A stretch of 23,045 nt of DNA from a virus. The stretch is from positions 1 through 23,045 of IMG/VR virus record IMGVR_UViG_3300022868_000101. The stretch is one strand, 5' to 3'. A program made the translations under genes and the position numbers. The notes beneath the pieces are model-generated. The model was given only the letters and a program-made list of their open reading frames with translations. It made no database searches and was not told the origin of the DNA. Below are positions 3,450-15,071 of this stretch, piece by piece; position 1 is the first letter of the stretch, and the number at the start of each line of letters is the position of its first letter.

Positions 3450-5123
3450 TTATTGCCACGCTGCTGCGAATGTTGGCGCACCTGCGTTTTGGTCGGCTAA
3501 TTTATCAGCGTTACCTGTAACTCCTATGACCTCAGCATCAGTATATGATCCTGTCTCAGTATCAGTCCAGTATTTTAAATCCGAATCATGCGGATATGCT
3601 GACATAATATTACATGTCTCTGTGCTCGTCTGACCTGTTATGATATCTGTTTTAGCCCAGTCTGTTGTCGGAGCAACATTTATAGTTAGTAGACGTGTAG
3701 GTATAGCAGTGTAGTTATCAAGACTTGTTCCATCATTACCAGCACCACTAAAACAATTTGATGTTACTTGAGATCCAGTTCCAAAATCAAAATCCCATAA
3801 AGCAGGAGCCGTACCCTGAGTTCCTGTAAATGAGGTTCTGAAAAAACAAAAATTGAAAGCTACTGATTGATTTAAGAAACGAGACCCCTCTTCACCAGAG
3901 GCACAAAAAACTGTAGAGTGGTGTTGAAGTTTATTGCTTCCACTAAATGTAGATGAGAAAGTAAGACATGATGTATTATATCGGAATAAATCGACTCCAA
4001 TCGTTTCTAATAGAGGACATGTATCAAAACTGGAAATAAAGCTTGCAGCAGAAGTATTATATGTAAATGAATTATTTGGAATGGCTGTTAATACAGAGCA
4101 TCCTTTGAATACACTGCTAAAAGAAGCTGAAGATATTGATATATTATATCGGAATAAATCGGTCGGAATAGTTGTAATCTTATTGCAATTGATAAAGGTG
4201 CTTCCAAATGCCGATGTAGTTATATTTGTATTAAACTTGAATAAATCGGTTGGTATCGATGTTAATGATGTATTTTTACAGTCTTTGAATGTATTTCTAA
4301 ATGATGTTTTAGTCATTGCTGTATTATAGTCAAATAAACTTCCAACTATAGCTGTAAGTGCTTCACATGCATTGAAACAATCTGAAAATGCTGTCGTTGT
4401 TATATTTATATTATATTTGAAAAGGTCAGCAACTATTGATGTAAGAGCTATACAATAACGAAATGTACTGCTAAATGCTACTGTTGTTAATTGAGGTTGA
4501 TATCTGAAAAGATCAGCAGGAATTGATGTTATAGTAGTACATGCATAAAACGTCCAGGAGAATCCATTAGCTGCTGCCATACCTGAACAACCATCAAACA
4601 ATCCTGATGGTATAGACGTAAGCGCAGAACATGAATAAAACATTTCTGTCGCATTAATCAAAGATGCCATAGTTCCAAGAGCACATGCAGTATGTAGAGA
4701 AGTACATCCATTAAAATTCAGAACTTTGAATCCCATGTCACCAGTAAATGCGTTAAGTTCTACAATAAGCGTCTTATCTCCTGCATTGTTGAACTTAAAC
4801 CACTCACAAGTTCCTGTCATAACAACGGTAAACGTTCCGGCTCCTGTGTATGAATGAGTTCTATCAGCGTCGTCATACGATGTTATAGTGCTTGATGAGC
4901 TATCACCCCAGTCAACTTCAAAATCTTGAGTCATTCCTGCGCCGCCTGCTAATATAGGAAGCTCGAAAGTGTCAGCAGCTGCCGTAGTGACGTCAAAAGA
5001 GAAGGTAGAAGGAACAGGAGGGGCAAAATCAATACCGATAATCTTCCCAATAGAAGCAGCAGCGACGCCATTGACTTTGCCTATGCTCGCTTGAGCAACG
5101 CCCATAAATTTTCCTAATGTCAT
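3450..5123 (-). CDS. BspA/DUF285-like leucine-rich-repeat adhesin with PKD-like domain
   Basis: A 557-residue likely receptor-binding or fibre protein. Residues 1-31 hold a repeated motif, ASIGKVNGVAAASIGKI, which is often found at the start of phage appendage proteins. Residues about 38-104 look like a PKD fold (VDWGDSSSS, then THSYTGAGTFTVVMTG). Residues about 137-400 hold seven or eight repeats of about 29-30 residues with the pattern LTSIP-x-DLF-x-YN, then F-x2-F-x2-C. That is the BspA-type/DUF285 leucine-rich repeat known from surface adhesins. The C-terminal 120 residues form a distinct domain. The start overlaps the HNH gene's stop by four bases, and its AAAGGAG Shine-Dalgarno lies inside that gene's last codons. 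The repeat class is clear; binding to a host surface is inferred from the location among fibre genes. Confidence 0.75.
   Translation of the reverse strand: MTLGKFMGVAQASIGKVNGVAAASIGKIIGIDFAPPVPSTFSFDVTTAAADTFELPILAGGAGMTQDFEVDWGDSSSSTITSYDDADRTHSYTGAGTFTVVMTGTCEWFKFNNAGDKTLIVELNAFTGDMGFKVLNFNGCTSLHTACALGTMASLINATEMFYSCSALTSIPSGLFDGCSGMAAANGFSWTFYACTTITSIPADLFRYQPQLTTVAFSSTFRYCIALTSIVADLFKYNINITTTAFSDCFNACEALTAIVGSLFDYNTAMTKTSFRNTFKDCKNTSLTSIPTDLFKFNTNITTSAFGSTFINCNKITTIPTDLFRYNISISSASFSSVFKGCSVLTAIPNNSFTYNTSAASFISSFDTCPLLETIGVDLFRYNTSCLTFSSTFSGSNKLQHHSTVFCASGEEGSRFLNQSVAFNFCFFRTSFTGTQGTAPALWDFDFGTGSQVTSNCFSGAGNDGTSLDNYTAIPTRLLTINVAPTTDWAKTDIITGQTSTETCNIMSAYPHDSDLKYWTDTETGSYTDAEVIGVTGNADKLADQNAGAPTFAAAWQ
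3924..4715 (-). repeat. Leucine-rich-repeat coding array
   Basis: This DNA encodes the tandem repeats of the adhesin, with a period of about 87-90 bases. The same AT-rich words recur on the plus strand (for example ATATCGGAATAAATCG at about 3978 and 4149, and close variants further along). The array may change repeat number by recombination. Confidence 0.6.
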
Positions 5124-6052
5124 AGAATGTCTCCTTTAAGCGATTTCTTCATGCCCTTGTTCCATGGGATTTTTCCTTTATGAGCATCGCTAAGTTTTTG
5201 CTTGTGTTCGTCGGATAGTTTTCCGCCCTTATTCCATGGAGCTTGTCCTTTATGCGAATCACTTAATTTTTTCTTTTGTTCCTCTGTCATAGGGATTCCT
5301 TTATTGATAGAAATCTTACCTTTATTTGCTTTGCTTATTTTTTCCTTTTGCTCTTCTGTCATTGGAATTCCTTTATTCCATGGAATACTACCTTTCTTTG
5401 ACTCGCTCATCTTTTGTTTTGCTTCTTCAGTTATCGGTATCCCTTTGTTCCATGGGATTACTGAAAAGTCCCCTCTCTCCCAGTGAACTTTTGCATGACA
5501 TGAATTACAATAAGTAATACCATTATCAATATTAAATCGAAGTTCATCATTTTTATTCCATGGTATAATATGATGGGCGCTTAAACTTTCTGCCGTCCCA
5601 CATATCATACACTTTCCATCTCTAACTTTGACAGCTTTTGCCCATTTTTTAGCTTCACGTCCATGCCTATCAAGATTCTTATCTTTTTTTTCATGATAAG
5701 CAAGCAATGATTGTCGTCTTTTTTCTATTTCTTCTTTCGGTTGTTTCTTCCCTCTATTTTGATGTCCAACCCTCTCGCAATATTCGGGAGACATCTTTTT
5801 TCCTTTATTCCAAGGAGTGCGGCCTATTTTAGATATGCTAGATTTTTTCGTGCCTTCCTTTACTCTTACATTTGTGTCTGCTGTTAATCCTTTATTCCAA
5901 GGTATTCTCCCTTTTGCAAGTTTATTATCCTTCATCTTTAATGAAAATGCTATTCCATAACATTTTCTAGAACAATATTTCCTTGGTTTCTTAAGACATT
6001 CTCCACTAGGATTAAATTTTTTTTCGCATATTTTACAAATTCTTATTTTCAT
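5120..6052 (-). CDS. HNH homing-type endonuclease with NUMOD3 repeats
   Basis: A 310-residue nuclease. Residues 5-31 form a treble-clef-like zinc unit (CKIC, then YCSRKC). PWNKG boxes at about 51 and 80 begin NUMOD3 DNA-binding repeats. The HNH core covers about 138-192: CMIC at 148-151, AHH at 159-161, NGITYCNSCH at 177-186. After the core come five more repeats of about 24 residues, each with a PWNKG-like box followed by a TEEQK/SDEHK helix. Known relatives nick or cut DNA to spread their own genes. The gene stands among fibre genes with its own strong promoter (6080-6108), and its last codons serve as the ribosome binding site of the downstream adhesin. There is no sign of an intron: it is a free-standing insertion. 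Confidence 0.85.
   Translation of the reverse strand: MKIRICKICEKKFNPSGECLKKPRKYCSRKCYGIAFSLKMKDNKLAKGRIPWNKGLTADTNVRVKEGTKKSSISKIGRTPWNKGKKMSPEYCERVGHQNRGKKQPKEEIEKRRQSLLAYHEKKDKNLDRHGREAKKWAKAVKVRDGKCMICGTAESLSAHHIIPWNKNDELRFNIDNGITYCNSCHAKVHWERGDFSVIPWNKGIPITEEAKQKMSESKKGSIPWNKGIPMTEEQKEKISKANKGKISINKGIPMTEEQKKKLSDSHKGQAPWNKGGKLSDEHKQKLSDAHKGKIPWNKGMKKSLKGDIL
5138..5461 (-). repeat. NUMOD3-coding tandem repeats, 72-base period
   Basis: Repeated units encode PWNKG-x-PMTEEQK-like modules. On the plus strand the repeats show as TTCCATGG boxes spaced by about 72 bases. They are protein-coding repeats, not a CRISPR array, because the units are adjacent and keep one reading frame. Confidence 0.75.
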
Positions 6053-7837: not shown

Positions 7838-9760
7838 TTAAATAATTGTTATGTTACCTGTAATACTTACTTCTTTCCATTCTGTATTTGCAACAAAACA
7901 GATAAGAGATATACAGTCATCAGTCTGTGTGCTTTCTAATTTTCCTGCAATACCTGTTGTCGTCGCATAACCATTTGAATGTATGATATTACCTGCGTTC
8001 TGAGCGACTTCCCAACCAGCCGCGCCAACACCTGCGATTGCGACTATATCTCCGACTGCCGACACGGCAGGAAGCGTAACAACGACTCTGGTCGCCGCAT
8101 GATTACAGAAATAACCATTGCCGACTACTCCTGAAGTAGCTCCTGTTATAGTAGACCATGCCATAGCACCGCCGTATTCCGGTGCTAAATTAGTACCTAG
8201 AGTTAAAGCTCCCGATATCGACCAATTGCCATCGGACGGAGAATTGACTTGAATAAACGTTCCAGAAATAGTATTGCCGTCAGCAGCGACTATATCATCA
8301 AGCTGAGAAATTAGTGTCGAGCCAGTTCCGACATTAAAGCCATAACTTGAGCCGCCGATATCTGTAACGTGGATATGGTTGAAAAAGGAACATGTTGTCG
8401 AGGCTGTATCACCAGTAAAAATTCCATAGCCAGCATTTGTAGCACCAATATTAACATGAATATTGTTTCTGCGGTGTTCGTGATCTGTTCCTGTTCCGCC
8501 TAGGTGTGCAAGTCCAGCAACAACTAAAGCATCTGCATCATTAACAGTAATGTCATTTTCATAAAATTTGAAAACGCCTGTCGATGACGTATCTATACCA
8601 GTTCCCGTAACAAGAGCTGTACCGCTGTTGTTGATAGTAGCGTCCTTTACTAGCCCAAGTTCTATTACACCACCATCTTCTACTTTAAAAGCTCCCTTGT
8701 TAGCAGTTCCGCCACAAGCACCAGTATGAGCATAAGACACCTTCCCTAGAATAACCTTCAGCGTGCCAGCAGTGCCAGCACCAGGGTCAGTTATAGCGCC
8801 GACAGCAGGTTGAGCAACAGCAACGATATTGGCAGAAGATGTCATTTTTAGATGACACTCTTTAAAAGCACATAAACCTGATGTTCCTTGCACTGTATTT
8901 ATCGCCGACGTTGCAGCAGTACACTGTATTGTGAAACCCTTATATTGCAATCCAGTATAGATTCCGAAGTCAACGACGTTGGCATCGGCTTGAGTAATAA
9001 TTACAGAATTTGGCTTGCCTACAGCGATAAGGCTCATATTACTGCAGTCGTTCGTTACTGTCTCTGTATATGTCCCGGGGTGAACAAGTATTGTGCCTCC
9101 CGTTGTACAAGCCGTAACAGCAGCTTGTATCGTCAGCTTTGCACTACTATATGTTAGACCATCGGCGGCGTCATTCCCCCATTTTCCGACGAAGCATACT
9201 CCGCTACCAGGGCGTTGCGAAACAGCACCTGACGAAACATTAAAGTCATACTGATCGAAAGACGCTACGCCCTTCGTTGTCGTCGTGGCATCAGGGATAG
9301 CCGCTGTAATATTATTCCAGCTCGACGAGAAAATATACAAAGTAGTCTCATCAAGAACATAACAGAAACCTCCAGACGAAGGCGTCGTTGATATCCACGT
9401 TGCACCGTCATACTGAACAACATCATCACCGATAGCGCCATCCCAATCTGCGTGAACTGGAGTTGATCTGTCAAGAATATATCTTGCTCCAACAATTTCA
9501 CTAGGAGGGGAAAGTGTTGCATCAGCTATCGAAAGAACATCATCATAAAAGTCAGTTGTCGATGATGATAGTTTTTCCCATTGAGCTGCATTTGCTGTAT
9601 TATTGCGAAGGATATAAAAATCTTCCGTAGCTTTATTTCTTCCAAGCGTTCCTACCGTATAGCCAAAATCTGTGATCTTAGGAACGCCCTCAAACGGGAC
9701 AACCCTCATTCCTACAGTTGTCAATTGTCTAGTGATAGCGTCGATTACTTGTGCTGTCAT
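7838..9760 (-). CDS. Large tail fibre/tailspike with beta-helix
   Basis: A 640-residue fibre. Residues 86-160 resemble DUF2793 (GARYIL, GDDVVQYDGATWISTTP, then CYVLDETTLYIFSSSWN), a linker module of phage fibres. Residues about 188-480 look like a right-handed beta-helix of the pectate-lyase type, opening with KLTIQAAVTACTTGGTILVHPGTYTETV and continuing with repeated short strands. No catalytic residues for depolymerisation can be identified. The final 85 residues or so match the C-terminal domain of the neighbouring fibre protein. In a myovirus this would be a side or tip fibre that contacts a surface sugar; enzymatic activity is only possible. Confidence 0.75.
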   Translation of the reverse strand: MTAQVIDAITRQLTTVGMRVVPFEGVPKITDFGYTVGTLGRNKATEDFYILRNNTANAAQWEKLSSSTTDFYDDVLSIADATLSPPSEIVGARYILDRSTPVHADWDGAIGDDVVQYDGATWISTTPSSGGFCYVLDETTLYIFSSSWNNITAAIPDATTTTKGVASFDQYDFNVSSGAVSQRPGSGVCFVGKWGNDAADGLTYSSAKLTIQAAVTACTTGGTILVHPGTYTETVTNDCSNMSLIAVGKPNSVIITQADANVVDFGIYTGLQYKGFTIQCTAATSAINTVQGTSGLCAFKECHLKMTSSANIVAVAQPAVGAITDPGAGTAGTLKVILGKVSYAHTGACGGTANKGAFKVEDGGVIELGLVKDATINNSGTALVTGTGIDTSSTGVFKFYENDITVNDADALVVAGLAHLGGTGTDHEHRRNNIHVNIGATNAGYGIFTGDTASTTCSFFNHIHVTDIGGSSYGFNVGTGSTLISQLDDIVAADGNTISGTFIQVNSPSDGNWSISGALTLGTNLAPEYGGAMAWSTITGATSGVVGNGYFCNHAATRVVVTLPAVSAVGDIVAIAGVGAAGWEVAQNAGNIIHSNGYATTTGIAGKLESTQTDDCISLICFVANTEWKEVSITGNITII

Positions 9761-9781
9761 ATTATTCTACTCCCAAAAATT

Positions 9782-10336
9782 TTATGTATAATCACAGTTT
9801 CCGTATGATCTTTTATATACAGTTCCCGATGTTCCTGCCGCAGCCCATCCTGACGAATCAACATCGAGATCGGTATTGACATCGACAAGAGTGAATTTTT
9901 TAACACCTGTTACTTTTATCTTATACATGATGCTTCCGTATCCATCGCCGTTGGCTTCGGTGGCATCACTACCTATAATCTCAATTCTATCCCCTGTCGA
10001 ATAATCATGGTCGGTATCTGTCTGAACTTCTGCGATCAGAGCTTTCGATATTGCTGTGATAGTAACTCCGACAGAATTGTCGATGACATGATCTCGTAAG
10101 ACAAAAGTATTCGTTCCTGTCGTCGCTTGACGAACTCGTACTATATTACCTTTTGCGTCATAGGTTATTTTTAGGAGTTTCCACCCAGCAACATCAAGTG
10201 CTATATTAGGTACAGCGGCTCCTATAAAAACGATATTCGGAGTTCCACCGTATGAGTACCAACTACTGTCATCTGACGATAAGAAAGGCATAAGTTGTTG
10301 TTGAGCATCTCTCATCTGAAAAGGGTCGTAAGTCAT
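9782..10336 (-). CDS. Tail appendage/fibre-linked structural protein
   Basis: A 184-residue protein with MTYDPFQMRDAQQQLMPF at the start, a central VAGWKLLKITYDAKGNIVRVRQA strand pair that recurs in small phage structural proteins, and a second domain (TDHDYSTGDRIEIIGSD to SSGWAAAGTSGTVYKRSY) of the kind often called ubiquitin-activating-enzyme-like in phage fibres. It probably links fibres to the baseplate. GGAG lies about nine bases before the ATG. It is now the first gene after the plus-strand HNH insertion, so its late transcription may have to read through that cassette. Confidence 0.55.
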   Translation of the reverse strand: MTYDPFQMRDAQQQLMPFLSSDDSSWYSYGGTPNIVFIGAAVPNIALDVAGWKLLKITYDAKGNIVRVRQATTGTNTFVLRDHVIDNSVGVTITAISKALIAEVQTDTDHDYSTGDRIEIIGSDATEANGDGYGSIMYKIKVTGVKKFTLVDVNTDLDVDSSGWAAAGTSGTVYKRSYGNCDYT

Positions 10337-10413: not shown

Positions 10414-10436
10414 GATATGATTAATTGTATTTATAT
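10407..10436 (+). promoter_or_regulatory. Possible upstream promoter of the plus-strand HNH gene
   Basis: TTGTCA at 10407-10412 and TTATAT at 10431-10436 are 18 bases apart and face the HNH gene. A perfect palindrome, GATACC-TAT-GGTATC (10437-10451), follows at once, where a repressor could block it. It overlaps the candidate opposite-strand -35 element. Confidence 0.3.
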
Positions 10437-10451
10437 GATACCTATGGTATC
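10437..10451. promoter_or_regulatory. Palindrome GATACC-TAT-GGTATC
   Basis: Six-base arms are perfectly symmetric around TAT, placed between two promoter-like sequences upstream of the HNH gene. It may be an operator or a short hairpin in a transcript from the upstream promoter. Confidence 0.35.
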
Positions 10452-10483
10452 CCCGGATTTCTATTTATTTTTATTCTAAATTG

Positions 10484-10492
10484 TGGTATATA
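10484..10492 (+). promoter_or_regulatory. Extended -10 promoter for the plus-strand HNH leader
   Basis: TGGTATATA (TGnTATATA) is an extended -10 element. It predicts a transcript starting at about 10499-10500, exactly where the structured leader begins. The -35 region is weak (TTTATT), which extended -10 promoters tolerate. Confidence 0.45.
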
Positions 10493-10499
10493 TAAAAGC

Positions 10500-10629
10500 A
10501 AGAGATAGGGGTCGTACGTCCGAAAAGTGCCTTTCTCTGATATTTGTGCTGTTGGTTAGGGTAGCTCCCGAGTCTCGTCAGTGAGTAGATGAGAGCCTGC
10601 AGCATTCTTTTAATCTCTAACTCAAGAGG
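10500..10629 (+). ncRNA. Structured 5' leader of the HNH gene, possible RNA switch
   Basis: The leader can fold as follows. Hairpin 1 pairs AGAGA at 10501-10505 with TCTCT at 10534-10538, continuing after one U-U mismatch with AGG/CCT. A three-way junction is closed by GTGCTG/CAGCAT (10546-10551 with 10600-10605); it encloses GGG/CCC (10559-10561, 10567-10569) and a seven-pair hairpin, TCTCGTC/GATGAGA (10573-10579, 10588-10594). At the 3' end, TCTCT (10614-10618) can pair with AGAGG (10625-10629), the Shine-Dalgarno. The same ATCTCT (10613-10618) can instead pair with AGAGAT (10501-10506), which would free the ribosome site. I recognise no known family. The fold was drawn by eye from base pairing only. 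Confidence 0.45.
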
Positions 10630-10637
10630 TCTATAGT

Positions 10638-11336
10638 ATGAAAGTCAAATGTGATTTCTGCTCTAAAGAATTTGATATTTTTCCATATGCTCTGAAAAGG
10701 ACTAAACTCCATTTCTGCTCTAGAGAATGTTACTCGGAATTCAGACCAAAACCAGCTCTTGTAAAGTGTCTTTTCTGCAAAAAAGAGTTTAAAAAGAATC
10801 TCAGTCAAATCGAAATATATAAAAATCATTTCTGCTCTAAAGAATGTCATATCAAGCATTATCATCTACCTAATATCATAGAAGAACGGTTTTTTAAGTA
10901 CATTGAAAAACAAGAGAACGGATGCTGGATATGGACGGGGCATGTAAAACGAGATGGATATGGAGCAAGCAGACACATTGGTAAATACGTACTATCTCAT
11001 CGCTTATCATGGATAATTCACAACGGAGAAATTCCAAAAGGAATGTTTATTCTACATAAATGTGACGTTAGGTCATGTGTCAATCCCGAACATTTATTTT
11101 TAGGAACTCATCAGGATAATATGGACGACATGATAAATAAAAAAAGAGACAGACATCTAAAAGGAGAAGATAGTGCCTTGTCTAAACTTACTGACGAAAA
11201 TGTAAGAGAAATAAGATCTCTATACAAATCCGGAAAATTCACACAAGAAGAGTTAGCTAATAAATTCCCTTGTAGCAGAGCCAACATATCTAGCATAATA
11301 TTGAGAAAGATATGGAGACACTTGGAGGACTGTTAA
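10638..11336 (+). CDS. HNH endonuclease, I-HmuI-like, on the opposite strand
   Basis: A 232-residue nuclease. The N-terminus has two treble-clef-like zinc units (residues 5-32 and 44-71), each of the form C-x2-C-x-K-x-F then HFCS-x-EC. Residues 82-165 form an HNH_3-type core: GCWIWTG at 95-101, a GDG-like DGYG turn, SHRLSW at 120-125, LHKCD at 139-143, C147, VNPEHL at 148-153 and GTHQDNMDDM. The C-terminal 184-229 looks like a helix-turn-helix for DNA binding (LTDENVREIRSLYKSGKFTQEELANKF). AGAGG eight bases upstream supports the start. It is the only plus-strand gene among the late genes, has its own promoter and leader, and ends in a hairpin, so it behaves as a free-standing mobile unit. Confidence 0.85.
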   Translation: MKVKCDFCSKEFDIFPYALKRTKLHFCSRECYSEFRPKPALVKCLFCKKEFKKNLSQIEIYKNHFCSKECHIKHYHLPNIIEERFFKYIEKQENGCWIWTGHVKRDGYGASRHIGKYVLSHRLSWIIHNGEIPKGMFILHKCDVRSCVNPEHLFLGTHQDNMDDMINKKRDRHLKGEDSALSKLTDENVREIRSLYKSGKFTQEELANKFPCSRANISSIILRKIWRHLEDC

Positions 11337-11343
11337 TCCTCCA
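11323..11343. terminator. Hairpin over the HNH stop codon
   Basis: TGGAGGA (11323-11329) pairs perfectly with TCCTCCA (11337-11343) around a seven-base loop that contains the HNH stop codon TAA. On the minus strand the same hairpin lies just after the end of the 238-residue fibre gene. It has no long U-tract, so it is a weak or two-way terminator, or a stability element. Confidence 0.45.
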
Positions 11344-11350
11344 CCTTAAA

Positions 11351-12067
11351 TTAAACTGTGAAGTTGTAACTATAACTTGCAACCCAGTTCCAATCTTCAG
11401 CTAAAACCCCAGTAACAAGAAGACGAATGTTGTTTCCAGAAACATCTGCATCAATCGCAGGCACTCCTGTCCCTGAATCATGGACAGAAACAATGCTCGG
11501 CACTCCCACTTCAACCGCTCCTGCGCCGACCCTACGAACGGTGTAAGTTATCGTACCTCCGACCGCCGCAGAATAGTCATCGATGATTCCATTTATTTTA
11601 GCTTCGATAGTTATACATGAATTCTCTGGTACGGCTATCGTGGAAATCGCTGTAGGTGTCGCGTCAGCCGTAGCCACTATAGTCCTCCCGCCCGATATAT
11701 CTTTCCATTTATCTGGAGAAGACGAAGGGTCATTTCCCGTATTTGGAGTCGTCTGCGATACATAAACCTTGCCATCATGGACTACCGCCGATCCAAGATA
11801 ATACTCCTGGAGAGTTCTCCATTCAACAATTCCCATCTGATGAATGTAAGCCAACACTTGAGACAACGTAAAACCTAAACCATTAAAGTCTTGCAGTGCG
11901 GGAGCATCATTTGCCGTTACAATTTCCCACCCAAGAAGAAAATCTGAATTCACATTATCGTCGATAGTATCTGATTGAGCAGTGTCTCCAAAAACAGTCC
12001 GTTCCGTTCCTGTCGCTGTCGAAGCGAAAGCCGTGAGGTTTCCGGTAAATCTTGCAATTTTAGTCAT
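11351..12067 (-). CDS. Tail-fibre paralogue with shared N-terminal domain
   Basis: A 238-residue protein. Its first 125 residues or so align along their length with the next protein's N-terminus: FTGNLTAFAS against YNGNLAAFGS, then ERTVFG, then DFNGLGF, YIHQMGIVEW, EYYLGSA and TTPNTGNDPS in the same order. The C-terminal half is different (GAGAVEVGVPSIVSVHDSG, then EDWNWVASYSYNFTV) and resembles a small beta-rich tip domain. The shared N-terminus is probably the baseplate- or fibre-attachment part. AAGAGG before the ATG overlaps the stop of the upstream gene. The minus-strand transcript continues downstream into the HNH insertion. Confidence 0.7.
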   Translation of the reverse strand: MTKIARFTGNLTAFASTATGTERTVFGDTAQSDTIDDNVNSDFLLGWEIVTANDAPALQDFNGLGFTLSQVLAYIHQMGIVEWRTLQEYYLGSAVVHDGKVYVSQTTPNTGNDPSSSPDKWKDISGGRTIVATADATPTAISTIAVPENSCITIEAKINGIIDDYSAAVGGTITYTVRRVGAGAVEVGVPSIVSVHDSGTGVPAIDADVSGNNIRLLVTGVLAEDWNWVASYSYNFTV

Positions 12068-12078
12068 CTATCAACCTC

Positions 12079-13167
12079 TTAATATTTTATACACGCAAAC
12101 AATGCGATATTTTTGACTCGTGTTTCTGCTTGTGCAGTGTTTGCGCTTGTCGTTGCGCCTTCTTTTGCTCCTGATATTGATGCACCTGAACTTAACACCC
12201 CGCTTGTAACACCATTAACACCACTCGGAGCATCTTCACCCTGAACGTGCCGTCCTCCACCGAGAACGTCTGTCGTATATCCAGCTTTGCAATAAGCATC
12301 AAGTTCCGATGATTGTGCGCCGATTCCAGAATAGTGAGAGTGTTGTTCAAGTGCGTCATCTTGATTCGATCCCATGACACGACCTATATCAACTCCTGCA
12401 CCGTCGTCCCAACCTCTGGCAAACTGTCCTCTCATGTCGGGAATGTTGAAAGTCAATGCGCCATCGCCAGCACCATATGTTATTCCTATCGCCGCAAAAA
12501 GAACAGAGTATGCCGCCCTTGATATTGCCGCTCCGTTTGCCTGTAGCCATCCGGTAGGAGCTGTAGCCATTGCGAAAAATTGTACTGCGCCTGCGGGAAT
12601 ACCCGCCTCGACAACAAGTTCGTCGATTGCAGTTTTTACATTCGTTGCCGCCAAGCCTGATATCGCATTGTCATAAGTTATACTGCTAGAGATAGAAAGC
12701 TCGTCAAGGGCATCCTGTACATTTGTTGCCGCTAGTCCTGAAGCAATATTGTCATAGGTTATGCTAACAGCATCTTCGAGGTCTTCCATCGCAGCCATCA
12801 ATTTCCAGCTTACTGTATCTGTAGCAGGATTATTGCCTGTGTTAGGCGTAACTTTAGAAATATAAAGATTTCCTGCCGTTATCGTCGCCGACCCAAGATA
12901 ATATTCTTGTGAAGAATTCCACTCGGCAATCCCCATTTGATGCAGATATGATAAAAGAAACGTTGTTGTGTATCCAAGACCGTTGAAATCCTGCTTCGAC
13001 GGCGGCGTGCTTGCGCTCACTATTCCCCATCCCGTAAGAAAATCCGCGTTGATATTATCAGCAAGCGTGTCGGATTGTAGAACTCCTCCAAAAACAGTTC
13101 TTTCAACTCCTGCGGCATTAGAGCCAAAAGCCGCCAAGTTTCCGTTATATCTAACAATTTTAGCCAT
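12079..13167 (-). CDS. Tail-collar fibre protein
   Basis: A 362-residue fibre protein. Residues 1-125 form the attachment-like domain shared with the next gene downstream. Residues 135-184 hold two copies of a SITYDN-x-SGLAATNV-x-AIDEL repeat, a common shaft motif of phage fibres. Residues 190-250 match the phage tail-collar domain (IPAGAVQFFAMATAPTGWLQANG, then YSVLFAAIGITYGAGDG, then FNIPDMRGQFARGWDDG). The C-terminus is rich in G, S and H, with HSHYSGIG, as seen in knob domains that fold around metal. This is probably a distal or short fibre. AAAGG seven bases before the ATG supports the start. Confidence 0.8.
   Translation of the reverse strand: MAKIVRYNGNLAAFGSNAAGVERTVFGGVLQSDTLADNINADFLTGWGIVSASTPPSKQDFNGLGYTTTFLLSYLHQMGIAEWNSSQEYYLGSATITAGNLYISKVTPNTGNNPATDTVSWKLMAAMEDLEDAVSITYDNIASGLAATNVQDALDELSISSSITYDNAISGLAATNVKTAIDELVVEAGIPAGAVQFFAMATAPTGWLQANGAAISRAAYSVLFAAIGITYGAGDGALTFNIPDMRGQFARGWDDGAGVDIGRVMGSNQDDALEQHSHYSGIGAQSSELDAYCKAGYTTDVLGGGRHVQGEDAPSGVNGVTSGVLSSGASISGAKEGATTSANTAQAETRVKNIALFACIKY
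12616..12765 (-). repeat. Two-copy fibre shaft repeat
   Basis: Two adjacent units of about 27 codons encode SITYDN-x-SGLAATNV-x-x-AIDEL. They are also similar at the DNA level and may recombine to change shaft length. Confidence 0.6.
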
Positions 13168-13179
13168 TTCATTACCTTT

Positions 13180-13896
13180 CTATAATAGTTTTCTTAAAAA
13201 ATACCCGCCCGCTTCAACGAGAGGATCGTCTTTATTTTTAAAGCCTTTGCAATTAACATTATTGGAAAACCCGAAATTATTTGTCGGGTCTGACTGTACA
13301 AGGATATATCTAACTCCTTGAGGCTTTGGCAGAACTCCGAGTGCTATGATGATACGAACTCTGTCATCATTAACAAGAGGGCTTATATGTAGTGTTAAGC
13401 TCATATCAAAATTATCTTGGACGTAAGCAAGACCTTCAAATAAATCAACAATAGCAATTTGCATCGATACATAATCAGCAGAAGTCATAATACCATGAGC
13501 GATATTCTTTCTTATCTTAGCTTTAATAAAAAAGCGAAAGTCTGGATCGTCAAGTTCCAAATCATCATATTGAGATGAAAATTTATTATACATCACACCA
13601 AGCTCGCCAAGATCAACAAATTTATCATCAAATTCTGTTGAGTTTGGATTGTCGTCGAATCCAAAAAAAACCTTAGCCAGGACAGAAGGAACGACCCTAT
13701 CAACTCCAACGATGCGACCTATTATATTAAGCCTATCTCCCGTAGCTTCGTCAATATCAAACTCTACTTCGAATGACTTTAAGAAGTCGAATACCCTTTC
13801 CCAGGTTCCAGATTGCAAAGCTATTTCTGCGCGAGCATTCGTCTTTTCCCAGTATTGTTTTATTAAAAGATCTTCGTATTCGCTTGTATAACTCAT
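13180..13896 (-). CDS. DUF2612 baseplate protein
   Basis: A 238-residue product matching DUF2612 phage proteins: an N-terminal helix with YEDLLIKQYWEK, then a core with DEATGDRLNIIGRIVGVDR, then DDLELDDPDFRFFIKAKIRKNIA, and a C-terminal strand region ending QGVRYILVQSD. The family sits directly after baseplate J in many myoviruses and takes the place of P2 gpI, joining the baseplate to the fibres. The order here, J then DUF2612 then fibres, fits. The ATG lies two bases after the J stop, so translation is coupled; no clear Shine-Dalgarno is present. The C-terminal 30 residues beyond the usual core are charged and probably specific to this phage. Confidence 0.75.
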   Translation of the reverse strand: MSYTSEYEDLLIKQYWEKTNARAEIALQSGTWERVFDFLKSFEVEFDIDEATGDRLNIIGRIVGVDRVVPSVLAKVFFGFDDNPNSTEFDDKFVDLGELGVMYNKFSSQYDDLELDDPDFRFFIKAKIRKNIAHGIMTSADYVSMQIAIVDLFEGLAYVQDNFDMSLTLHISPLVNDDRVRIIIALGVLPKPQGVRYILVQSDPTNNFGFSNNVNCKGFKNKDDPLVEAGGYFLRKLL

Positions 13897-13898
13897 TT

Positions 13899-15071
13899 TT
13901 AAGCCGTTGTTATAGCAATATTAGCTGTTGAGATAGTGAACTTTTGTTCTGCTGTAGCTGCCTGACTTGCGGCTGTGTATGTGATTCCGTCAAGTCCAAC
14001 CTCAAGACCTGTTGCAACGAACGTATCACCTGCTCCATAAACGATACTATATAGTTCGCTAGCACTTGCGTTCTCTCCTATATCATATTTCTTCGCAACT
14101 AAAGCTTCTGAAACTAGGCTTGTAACGATTGGAAAAGCGGGGTCTTTTTCGGTAAGCGTCATCTTGACATATAGTTCAGTTGGGCTAGGGATGTCGAAAA
14201 GCATATTATGAGCATAAGTAAAAGTAGTTCCATCAGGCAACGTAATCTCTTCATTATATGTCCCTGTCACACCACCTTTTAAACCTGTGCCTGCGTTCTT
14301 TGTTTTAGCGAGAACCTCGCCTATCTCAGCATTAGTCCCACCTTCAACAATACACCATATCGTATGAGGATCAAGAGTAAGAGTTACATCTACTGAATCA
14401 GTATCGTTTTCATATATTTTTAACTTTGTCACGGATTTAATATCTGCTAGGGCTGAATATAGCCCAGAAATAGAACTTGTTTCTGGCGTAGCTAGAGAAA
14501 GGTTTCGGCGAATTCTGAGGTCTTCGTCGGTCTCTTCATCTTCTCCTATTGTAGCTATCGCCGCGTTTGTTACTGATAAAACACCGATGATTATCGTTAC
14601 AGGAATAGTAACTTTATCCACCCCTGTCGATATCGCACCAAAATTCTCGGCGTATAATGTTGTTGTGTTAGCTCCAGATACTATGCTTACAGTCTCTAAA
14701 GTCTTCCAGTTTTGACCGATATCATCTGATACTGTGTAGCCTATCGGCAAAGTAGCAGATCGATCGGCTGTAATTGTGACAGAAACGTACGATCTGACAG
14801 CAGATTGACGACTTATTCCAGAGAATTTTACAAGCCTGTTAAGAGCTTGTCCGATAGCAAAATCAGGGTCGAGCTGATTATACAGTTGAATCCCGAACGA
14901 TTGAAGATCGAGCCTCGCCTGTGCTTCTATAGCAACCCTTTGACCATCGGGGCTATCAGAATCAAGATTGATGTCTGAGCCATAAATGGTCTTGTAGCCG
15001 TCAGATAATTCCGTTACGATCTCGTCGAAAGTCTGTACTTCGATGCCGTCTTCTGTAAAATTTGGTTTCAT
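13899..15071 (-). CDS. Baseplate J-like wedge protein
   Basis: A 390-residue baseplate wedge protein. The N-terminus has the typical FDEIVTELSDGYKTIYGSDINLD-SDSPDGQ start. The region LNRLVKFSGISRQSA follows, then a beta domain, then EDEETDEDLRIRRNLSLATPETSSISGLYSALADI (the J-like core, roughly residues 170-215), and a C-terminal VKMTL-like strand region. In T4 terms it corresponds to gp6 and forms the ring that opens when the tail contracts. AGGGGT eight bases before the ATG supports the start. The neighbours (gp25-like upstream, DUF2612 downstream) are the usual ones, with one extra small protein in between. Confidence 0.85.
   Translation of the reverse strand: MKPNFTEDGIEVQTFDEIVTELSDGYKTIYGSDINLDSDSPDGQRVAIEAQARLDLQSFGIQLYNQLDPDFAIGQALNRLVKFSGISRQSAVRSYVSVTITADRSATLPIGYTVSDDIGQNWKTLETVSIVSGANTTTLYAENFGAISTGVDKVTIPVTIIIGVLSVTNAAIATIGEDEETDEDLRIRRNLSLATPETSSISGLYSALADIKSVTKLKIYENDTDSVDVTLTLDPHTIWCIVEGGTNAEIGEVLAKTKNAGTGLKGGVTGTYNEEITLPDGTTFTYAHNMLFDIPSPTELYVKMTLTEKDPAFPIVTSLVSEALVAKKYDIGENASASELYSIVYGAGDTFVATGLEVGLDGITYTAASQAATAEQKFTISTANIAITTA

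What the first reader, a model, noticed from the sequence alone, without database searches (positions are those of the whole stretch)
10484..10640. Structured RNA leader with a possible ribosome-site switch before an HNH endonuclease gene
Seen: an extended -10 element points to a transcript that begins at a possible hairpin. That hairpin is followed by a three-way junction (closing stem GTGCTG/CAGCAT, inner seven-pair hairpin). Then ATCTCT (10613-10618) can pair either with the Shine-Dalgarno AGAGG or with the leader's own AGAGAT at 10501. The two pairings exclude each other, so the leader could switch translation of the nuclease. Known: phage homing endonucleases are often held down by RNA structures. 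Inference: the complexity here goes beyond a simple hairpin and may be a new RNA class.
Basis: partly seen in the sequence, partly recalled or inferred. Interest (0 to 1): 0.7.

Follow-up and report, generated by a model that had tools for sequence, protein, structure and literature searches.

The report
Phage RNA leader gating endonuclease translation
Just upstream of a mobile DNA-cutting gene in this phage lies a folded RNA, related to a widespread but unexplained family called int-alpA, whose loops probably clasp the ribosome-binding site; the family's recurring sequence pattern suggests how such RNAs could switch translation on and off.

Summary
The three-way junction upstream of the HNH gene (10546-10605) is real and belongs to a recurrent family. 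Its core TTAGGGTAGCTCCCGA recurs, with the same junction, in phages and prophages of many bacterial groups, about 75-85 nt before a start codon. These elements overlap Rfam int-alpA (RF02996, listed as an sRNA of unknown function). The window scores below Rfam detection, so it is a divergent relative, not a formal member.

Against its closest relative (L105, another phage with an HNH gene), 31 of 32 proposed pairs survive 22 substitutions, six through double changes (null 23.5, 0/20000). New anatomy: the P2 loop (TGAGT) pairs with the loop (ACTCA) of a hairpin holding the Shine-Dalgarno, a kissing interaction that would mask the ribosome site. In the wider family the P2 loop is complementary to the Shine-Dalgarno region and to a decoy site upstream of it; both pairings cannot form together (both >=5 nt in 43/121 against 1.8 in swapped controls).

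RNA and HNH gene lie together in an insert absent from a related phage. Structure is well supported; translational control is inferred; trigger unknown.

The parts
10420..11345 (.). inserted segment (approximate ends): RNA leader plus HNH gene, absent from related phage L070, where the two flanking genes are 73 bp apart
   Evidence: L070 matches 7865-9991 and 11390-15065 at 66-68% nt; its 73-bp intergene keeps the TTGACA promoter of the downstream gene but has no RNA or HNH gene
10484..10492 (+). candidate extended -10 (TGG TATATA); weak, one of many such matches
10546..10556 (+). P1 5' strand of the three-way junction
10557..10572 (+). conserved core TAGGGTAGCTCCCGAG with mini-hairpin GGG(TAGCT)CCC 10559-10569
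10573..10594 (+). P2 hairpin, 7 bp, loop AGTGAGTA 10580-10587
10582..10586 (+). P2-loop half of the kissing helix (TGAGT)
   Evidence: two double compensatory changes against L105
10595..10605 (+). P1 3' strand
10606..10612 (+). pyrimidine-rich linker TCTTTTA
   Evidence: T-rich, G-poor linker is a family feature
10613..10630 (+). P4 hairpin ATCTCT(AACTCA)AGAGGT holding the Shine-Dalgarno AGAGG 10625-10629
10620..10624 (+). P4-loop half of the kissing helix (ACTCA)
10638..11336 (+). HNH endonuclease gene (zf-FCS-like N-terminus, HNH_3, C-terminal HTH-like end)

Best explanation
The leader is a cis-acting RNA, a divergent relative of int-alpA RNA, that holds down translation of the HNH gene. 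P1, the GGG-TAGCT-CCC mini-hairpin and P2 form a compact three-way junction; the P2 loop (TGAGT) docks on the loop (ACTCA) of hairpin P4, whose 3' strand is the Shine-Dalgarno AGAGG, so the ribosome site is masked. In the wider family the P2 loop can instead pair with a decoy site just 3' of P1, which would release the Shine-Dalgarno; the window keeps only the masking partner. Shown by comparison: P1, P2, kissing helix, P4, fixed spacing to the start codon. Inferred: that masking lowers translation, and that some ligand, protein, temperature change or co-transcriptional event lifts it. Trigger unknown.
For: Window against L105: 31/32 pairs kept, six double changes (two of them in the 5-bp kissing helix), null 23.5 +/- 1.7, 0/20000. 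Family: 37 gap-free sequences, 87.8% cells paired against 59.0 shuffled, covariation 0.715 against 0.174, slid structures 0.09-0.17. P2 loop complementary (>=5 nt) to the 21 nt before the start codon in 81/121 nonredundant elements against 14.6 when loops are swapped between elements (max 25 in 200 swaps); decoy site 61 against 4.7; both 43 against 1.8. P4 stem >=5 bp around that site in 69% against 30% shuffled. Start codon 72-86 nt after the core in most; window 82. Model R1, trained without the window, finds it once in 23 kb, 20.8 bits, E 1.9e-5. A homologue of this HNH protein (38% over 149 aa) sits behind a classical element in L227.
Against: No expression data. R1 matches the window mainly on the core: its alignment does not place P2 or P1' correctly, because the window has shorter junction strands (GAG instead of GAAAAG, none before P1'). 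Only one relative of this sub-type (L105) was found, and a 5-nt loop match alone is weak. Rfam does not detect the window. The window lacks the decoy site, so its release mechanism is unclear. No element at E <= 0.5 lies near any of the 62 other HNH homologues fetched, so the RNA is not tied to this protein.
Confidence: 0.66

Rival explanations
1. The RNA acts in trans, as an independent small RNA (Rfam labels int-alpA an sRNA); nearness to a start codon is incidental.
For: Rfam type 'Gene; sRNA'; some elements have a -10-like box abutting P1 (62/149 against 39.6 shuffled).
Against: Start codon at a nearly fixed distance, P2 loop covaries with the Shine-Dalgarno region of its own transcript, P4 stem around the SD, no consistent terminator before the gene.
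Confidence: 0.1
2. One reading: AGAGAT at 10501 and the Shine-Dalgarno compete for ATCTCT, making a two-state switch with the outer hairpin.
For: The complementarity exists in the sequence.
Against: Not conserved in L105 (longest complement there 4 nt) and chance level (12-32% of shuffles); the MFE pairs AGAGA with TTCTCT 10533-10538 instead.
Confidence: 0.06
3. A self-cleaving ribozyme or processing element that frees the inserted gene's mRNA from the host operon transcript.
For: Compact, pseudoknotted three-way junction with a conserved core, carried by insertions, often just after an upstream stop codon (70/112); 5' start abutting P1 in some.
Against: No match to any known ribozyme family; does not explain P2-loop complementarity to the SD.
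Confidence: 0.08
4. A transcription attenuator: P1 followed by a T-rich linker ends transcription before the gene.
For: T-rich linker after P1' (TTCTTTT in the window; 42-53% T in the family).
Against: The linker is mixed C/T/A in many members and no intrinsic terminator was called; SD-loop complementarity would be unexplained.
Confidence: 0.06

Closest known systems
int-alpA RNA (Rfam RF02996)
   Same: Three-way junction, TAG-hairpin-CGA core, P2 hairpin whose loop pairs 3' of P1, phage/prophage setting; the classical relatives of the window's element score above or near its cut-off (8 of 8 genomes).
   Different: The window scores below any reportable level, has GAG in place of GAAAAG, no 3' junction strand, and a single kissing partner beside the SD. 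Rfam lists int-alpA as an sRNA; here it behaves as a cis leader.
Ribosome-site hairpins of T4-type homing endonucleases (I-TevI, SegB, MobE; PMC2988022)
   Same: RNA structure masks the RBS of a phage endonuclease gene.
   Different: Those are single hairpins bypassed by a late promoter; here a conserved junction with a kissing loop, shared with unrelated genes, and no TATAAATA-type late promoter is seen in 10546-10637.
HEARO / IscB omega-RNA
   Same: RNA next to an HNH-type gene in a mobile unit.
   Different: No Rfam match; the window protein is HNH_3 with zinc fingers, not IscB.

Membership tests
int-alpA RNA (RF02996) | score at or above the Rfam gathering cut-off of 35.8 bits | tested here: not met
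   no match to the window even at E <= 10
int-alpA RNA (RF02996) | P1 / mini-hairpin / P2 three-way junction with TAG..CGA core | tested here: met
   core TAGGGTAGCTCCCGA identical to classical members
int-alpA RNA (RF02996) | CGAAA(AG) joining strand between mini-hairpin and P2 | tested here: not met
   window has CGAG
int-alpA RNA (RF02996) | P2 loop pairs with a site just 3' of P1 | tested here: inconclusive
   window pairs with a site in the P4 loop next to the SD instead; no decoy site
RBS-masking leader of phage homing endonucleases | SD sequestered in a helix | tested here: met
   P4 10613-10630 predicted in window and L105, 5 of 6 pairs kept; not measured
RBS-masking leader of phage homing endonucleases | internal late promoter that yields an unmasked transcript | tested here: inconclusive
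   no TATAAATA in 10546-10637 by reading the sequence; this phage's late promoters are unknown
riboswitch | ligand binding by the conserved core changes the expression platform | not testable with these tools
   platform-like alternation seen in relatives; no ligand known

The most novel reading that the evidence does not exclude
int-alpA and its relatives are not sRNAs but a very widespread class of phage and mobile-element translational switches: a conserved sensing junction presents an anti-Shine-Dalgarno loop that toggles between a decoy site and the ribosome site of the next gene (endonucleases, replication, Rha, integrase and unknown genes). The window is a derived sub-type in which only the masking kissing loop remains.
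Probability: 0.5. Interest if true: 0.8.

Novelty: new variant of a known kind. Interest (0 to 1): 0.64.

Why it matters
int-alpA RNA has had no assigned function; the only paper in the held library that names it lists it in a table. The two-partner loop pattern gives a concrete, testable mechanism and a reason to look for its trigger, which would be a signal that many phages and mobile genes read. The window extends the family to a form that Rfam cannot see and ties it to an inserted endonuclease cassette.

Tried and rejected
Rfam on the window, gathering and E <= 10: only chance hits. Upstream regions of 62 other HNH homologues: no shared leader. blastn of the leader against phages: nothing beyond AT-rich noise and the zinc-finger codons. 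The neighbouring phage genes as anchors gave only the same species plus L070 and L073. L370 (17-mer match) does not fold alike: chance. L096, L098, L104 and L129 have weak fits and may be chance; L342 was removed from the training set as a probable tRNA overlap. The Gordonia HNH coding hits (H69-H79) were not followed and look like chance. Hammerhead- and pistol-like cores were considered by eye and not matched.

Full report
Setting. The window is a 23-kb fragment of a tailed phage (sheath, baseplate J, tape measure, collar fibre genes on the minus strand). The HNH gene 10638-11336 (plus strand) sits between a tail-fibre gene and the next gene. A relative, L070 (66-68% nt over both flanks), has these genes 73 bp apart with the same TTGACA promoter but no HNH gene and no leader. 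RNA and gene are therefore found together in one insert of roughly 10420-11345.

Checking the claim. The junction 10541-10606 folds better than shuffles (z -2.8), the whole leader does not (z -0.9). The outer hairpin (z -0.8) and the AGAGAT alternative (12-32% by chance) are unremarkable. The leader's GC is about 50% in flanks of 21-23%. Rfam gave nothing.

Finding relatives. An exact scan of the 16-mer core TTAGGGTAGCTCCCGA gave loci in which, in several cases, the same architecture surrounds the core. Short blastn queries then found it in about 50 phage records, nearly all in unannotated intergenic gaps some 60-80 nt before a gene, often an inserted HNH or NUMOD gene. The Rfam int-alpA model recognises several of these, and did so in 8 of 8 bacterial genomes tested. 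In a survey of 395 genomes it found the family in 18 (17 above the cut-off); members found that way, without my core pattern, have other mini-hairpins (GGGGGACGCCCC, GACCGGCCAGTC) and include members with the same downstream layout. So the broad family is int-alpA, and GGGTAGCTCCC is one common version of its mini-hairpin. The core conservation in my sets is forced by the search pattern; the evidence below uses only positions outside it.

Family structure. On 37 gap-free sequences P1 and P2 covary strongly. Over 121 nonredundant elements the P2 loop is complementary to two places: a decoy just after P1 and the Shine-Dalgarno region; swapping loops between elements removes most of both signals, so this is element-specific covariation and not only generic anti-SD sequence. 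The SD-side site lies in the loop of a hairpin P4. The two pairings use the same loop and cannot coexist.

The window. L105, a different phage with an HNH gene, aligns without gaps over the structured region. Of 32 proposed pairs 31 are kept in L105 despite 22 substitutions, six by double changes (one of which turns a window U.U mismatch into G-C), including two of the five kissing pairs. The window and L105 differ from classical members in junction strands and in having no decoy; their P2 loop meets the P4 loop immediately before the SD. A model trained without the window finds it uniquely (E 1.9e-5) but aligns only the core well, so the relationship rests on core, topology, spacing and L105, not on that score alone. 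The proteins of the window and L105 share only a short C-terminal segment (36% over 56 aa), so the RNA similarity is not explained by close gene relationship. A better homologue of the HNH protein stands behind a classical element in L227, while 62 other homologues have none: the RNA and the endonucleases assort freely.

Genes behind the element. Of 149 proteins (clustered at 50% identity) at least 25 match one HNH PHROG, with NUMOD, GIY-YIG, endonuclease VII, Rha, replication and integrase families among the rest and many unknown. The union over all endonuclease models was not counted. The element is thus not endonuclease-specific.

Mechanism. Best reading: SD masking through a kissing loop, with toggling in classical members. 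Masking of phage endonuclease ribosome sites is established for T4-type genes (PMC2988022). Trigger, sign and size of the effect are unknown. The description of int-alpA as an sRNA is Rfam's label; the original description could not be read here.

Noticed in passing
window 5120-6052 (-): A second HNH-type gene lies within the structural region on the minus strand (PHROG HNH matches).
   Followed up: no
window 11911-12067 and 13011-13167: The starts of two neighbouring tail-fibre genes are 70% identical over about 158 bp, a duplicated fibre N-terminus.
   Followed up: no
window 11325-11343: GGAGGA CTGTTAA TCCTCC inverted repeat overlaps the HNH stop codon, near the insert's end; possible terminator or insertion scar.
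   Followed up: no
L390 / L400 (one genome): Two int-alpA elements 692 bp apart on the same strand, possibly tandem gene cassettes each with its own leader.
   Followed up: no
L106-L131, L132-L369: In many elements a TATAAT-like -10 begins 15-20 nt before the end of the P1 5' strand, so transcripts would start at P1 itself; the window lacks this.
   Followed up: partly
E. coli prophages, e.g. L371: 52 of 5426 complete E. coli genomes match one classical element; in L371 it lies upstream of a small unknown prophage gene after a Rha gene.
   Followed up: partly
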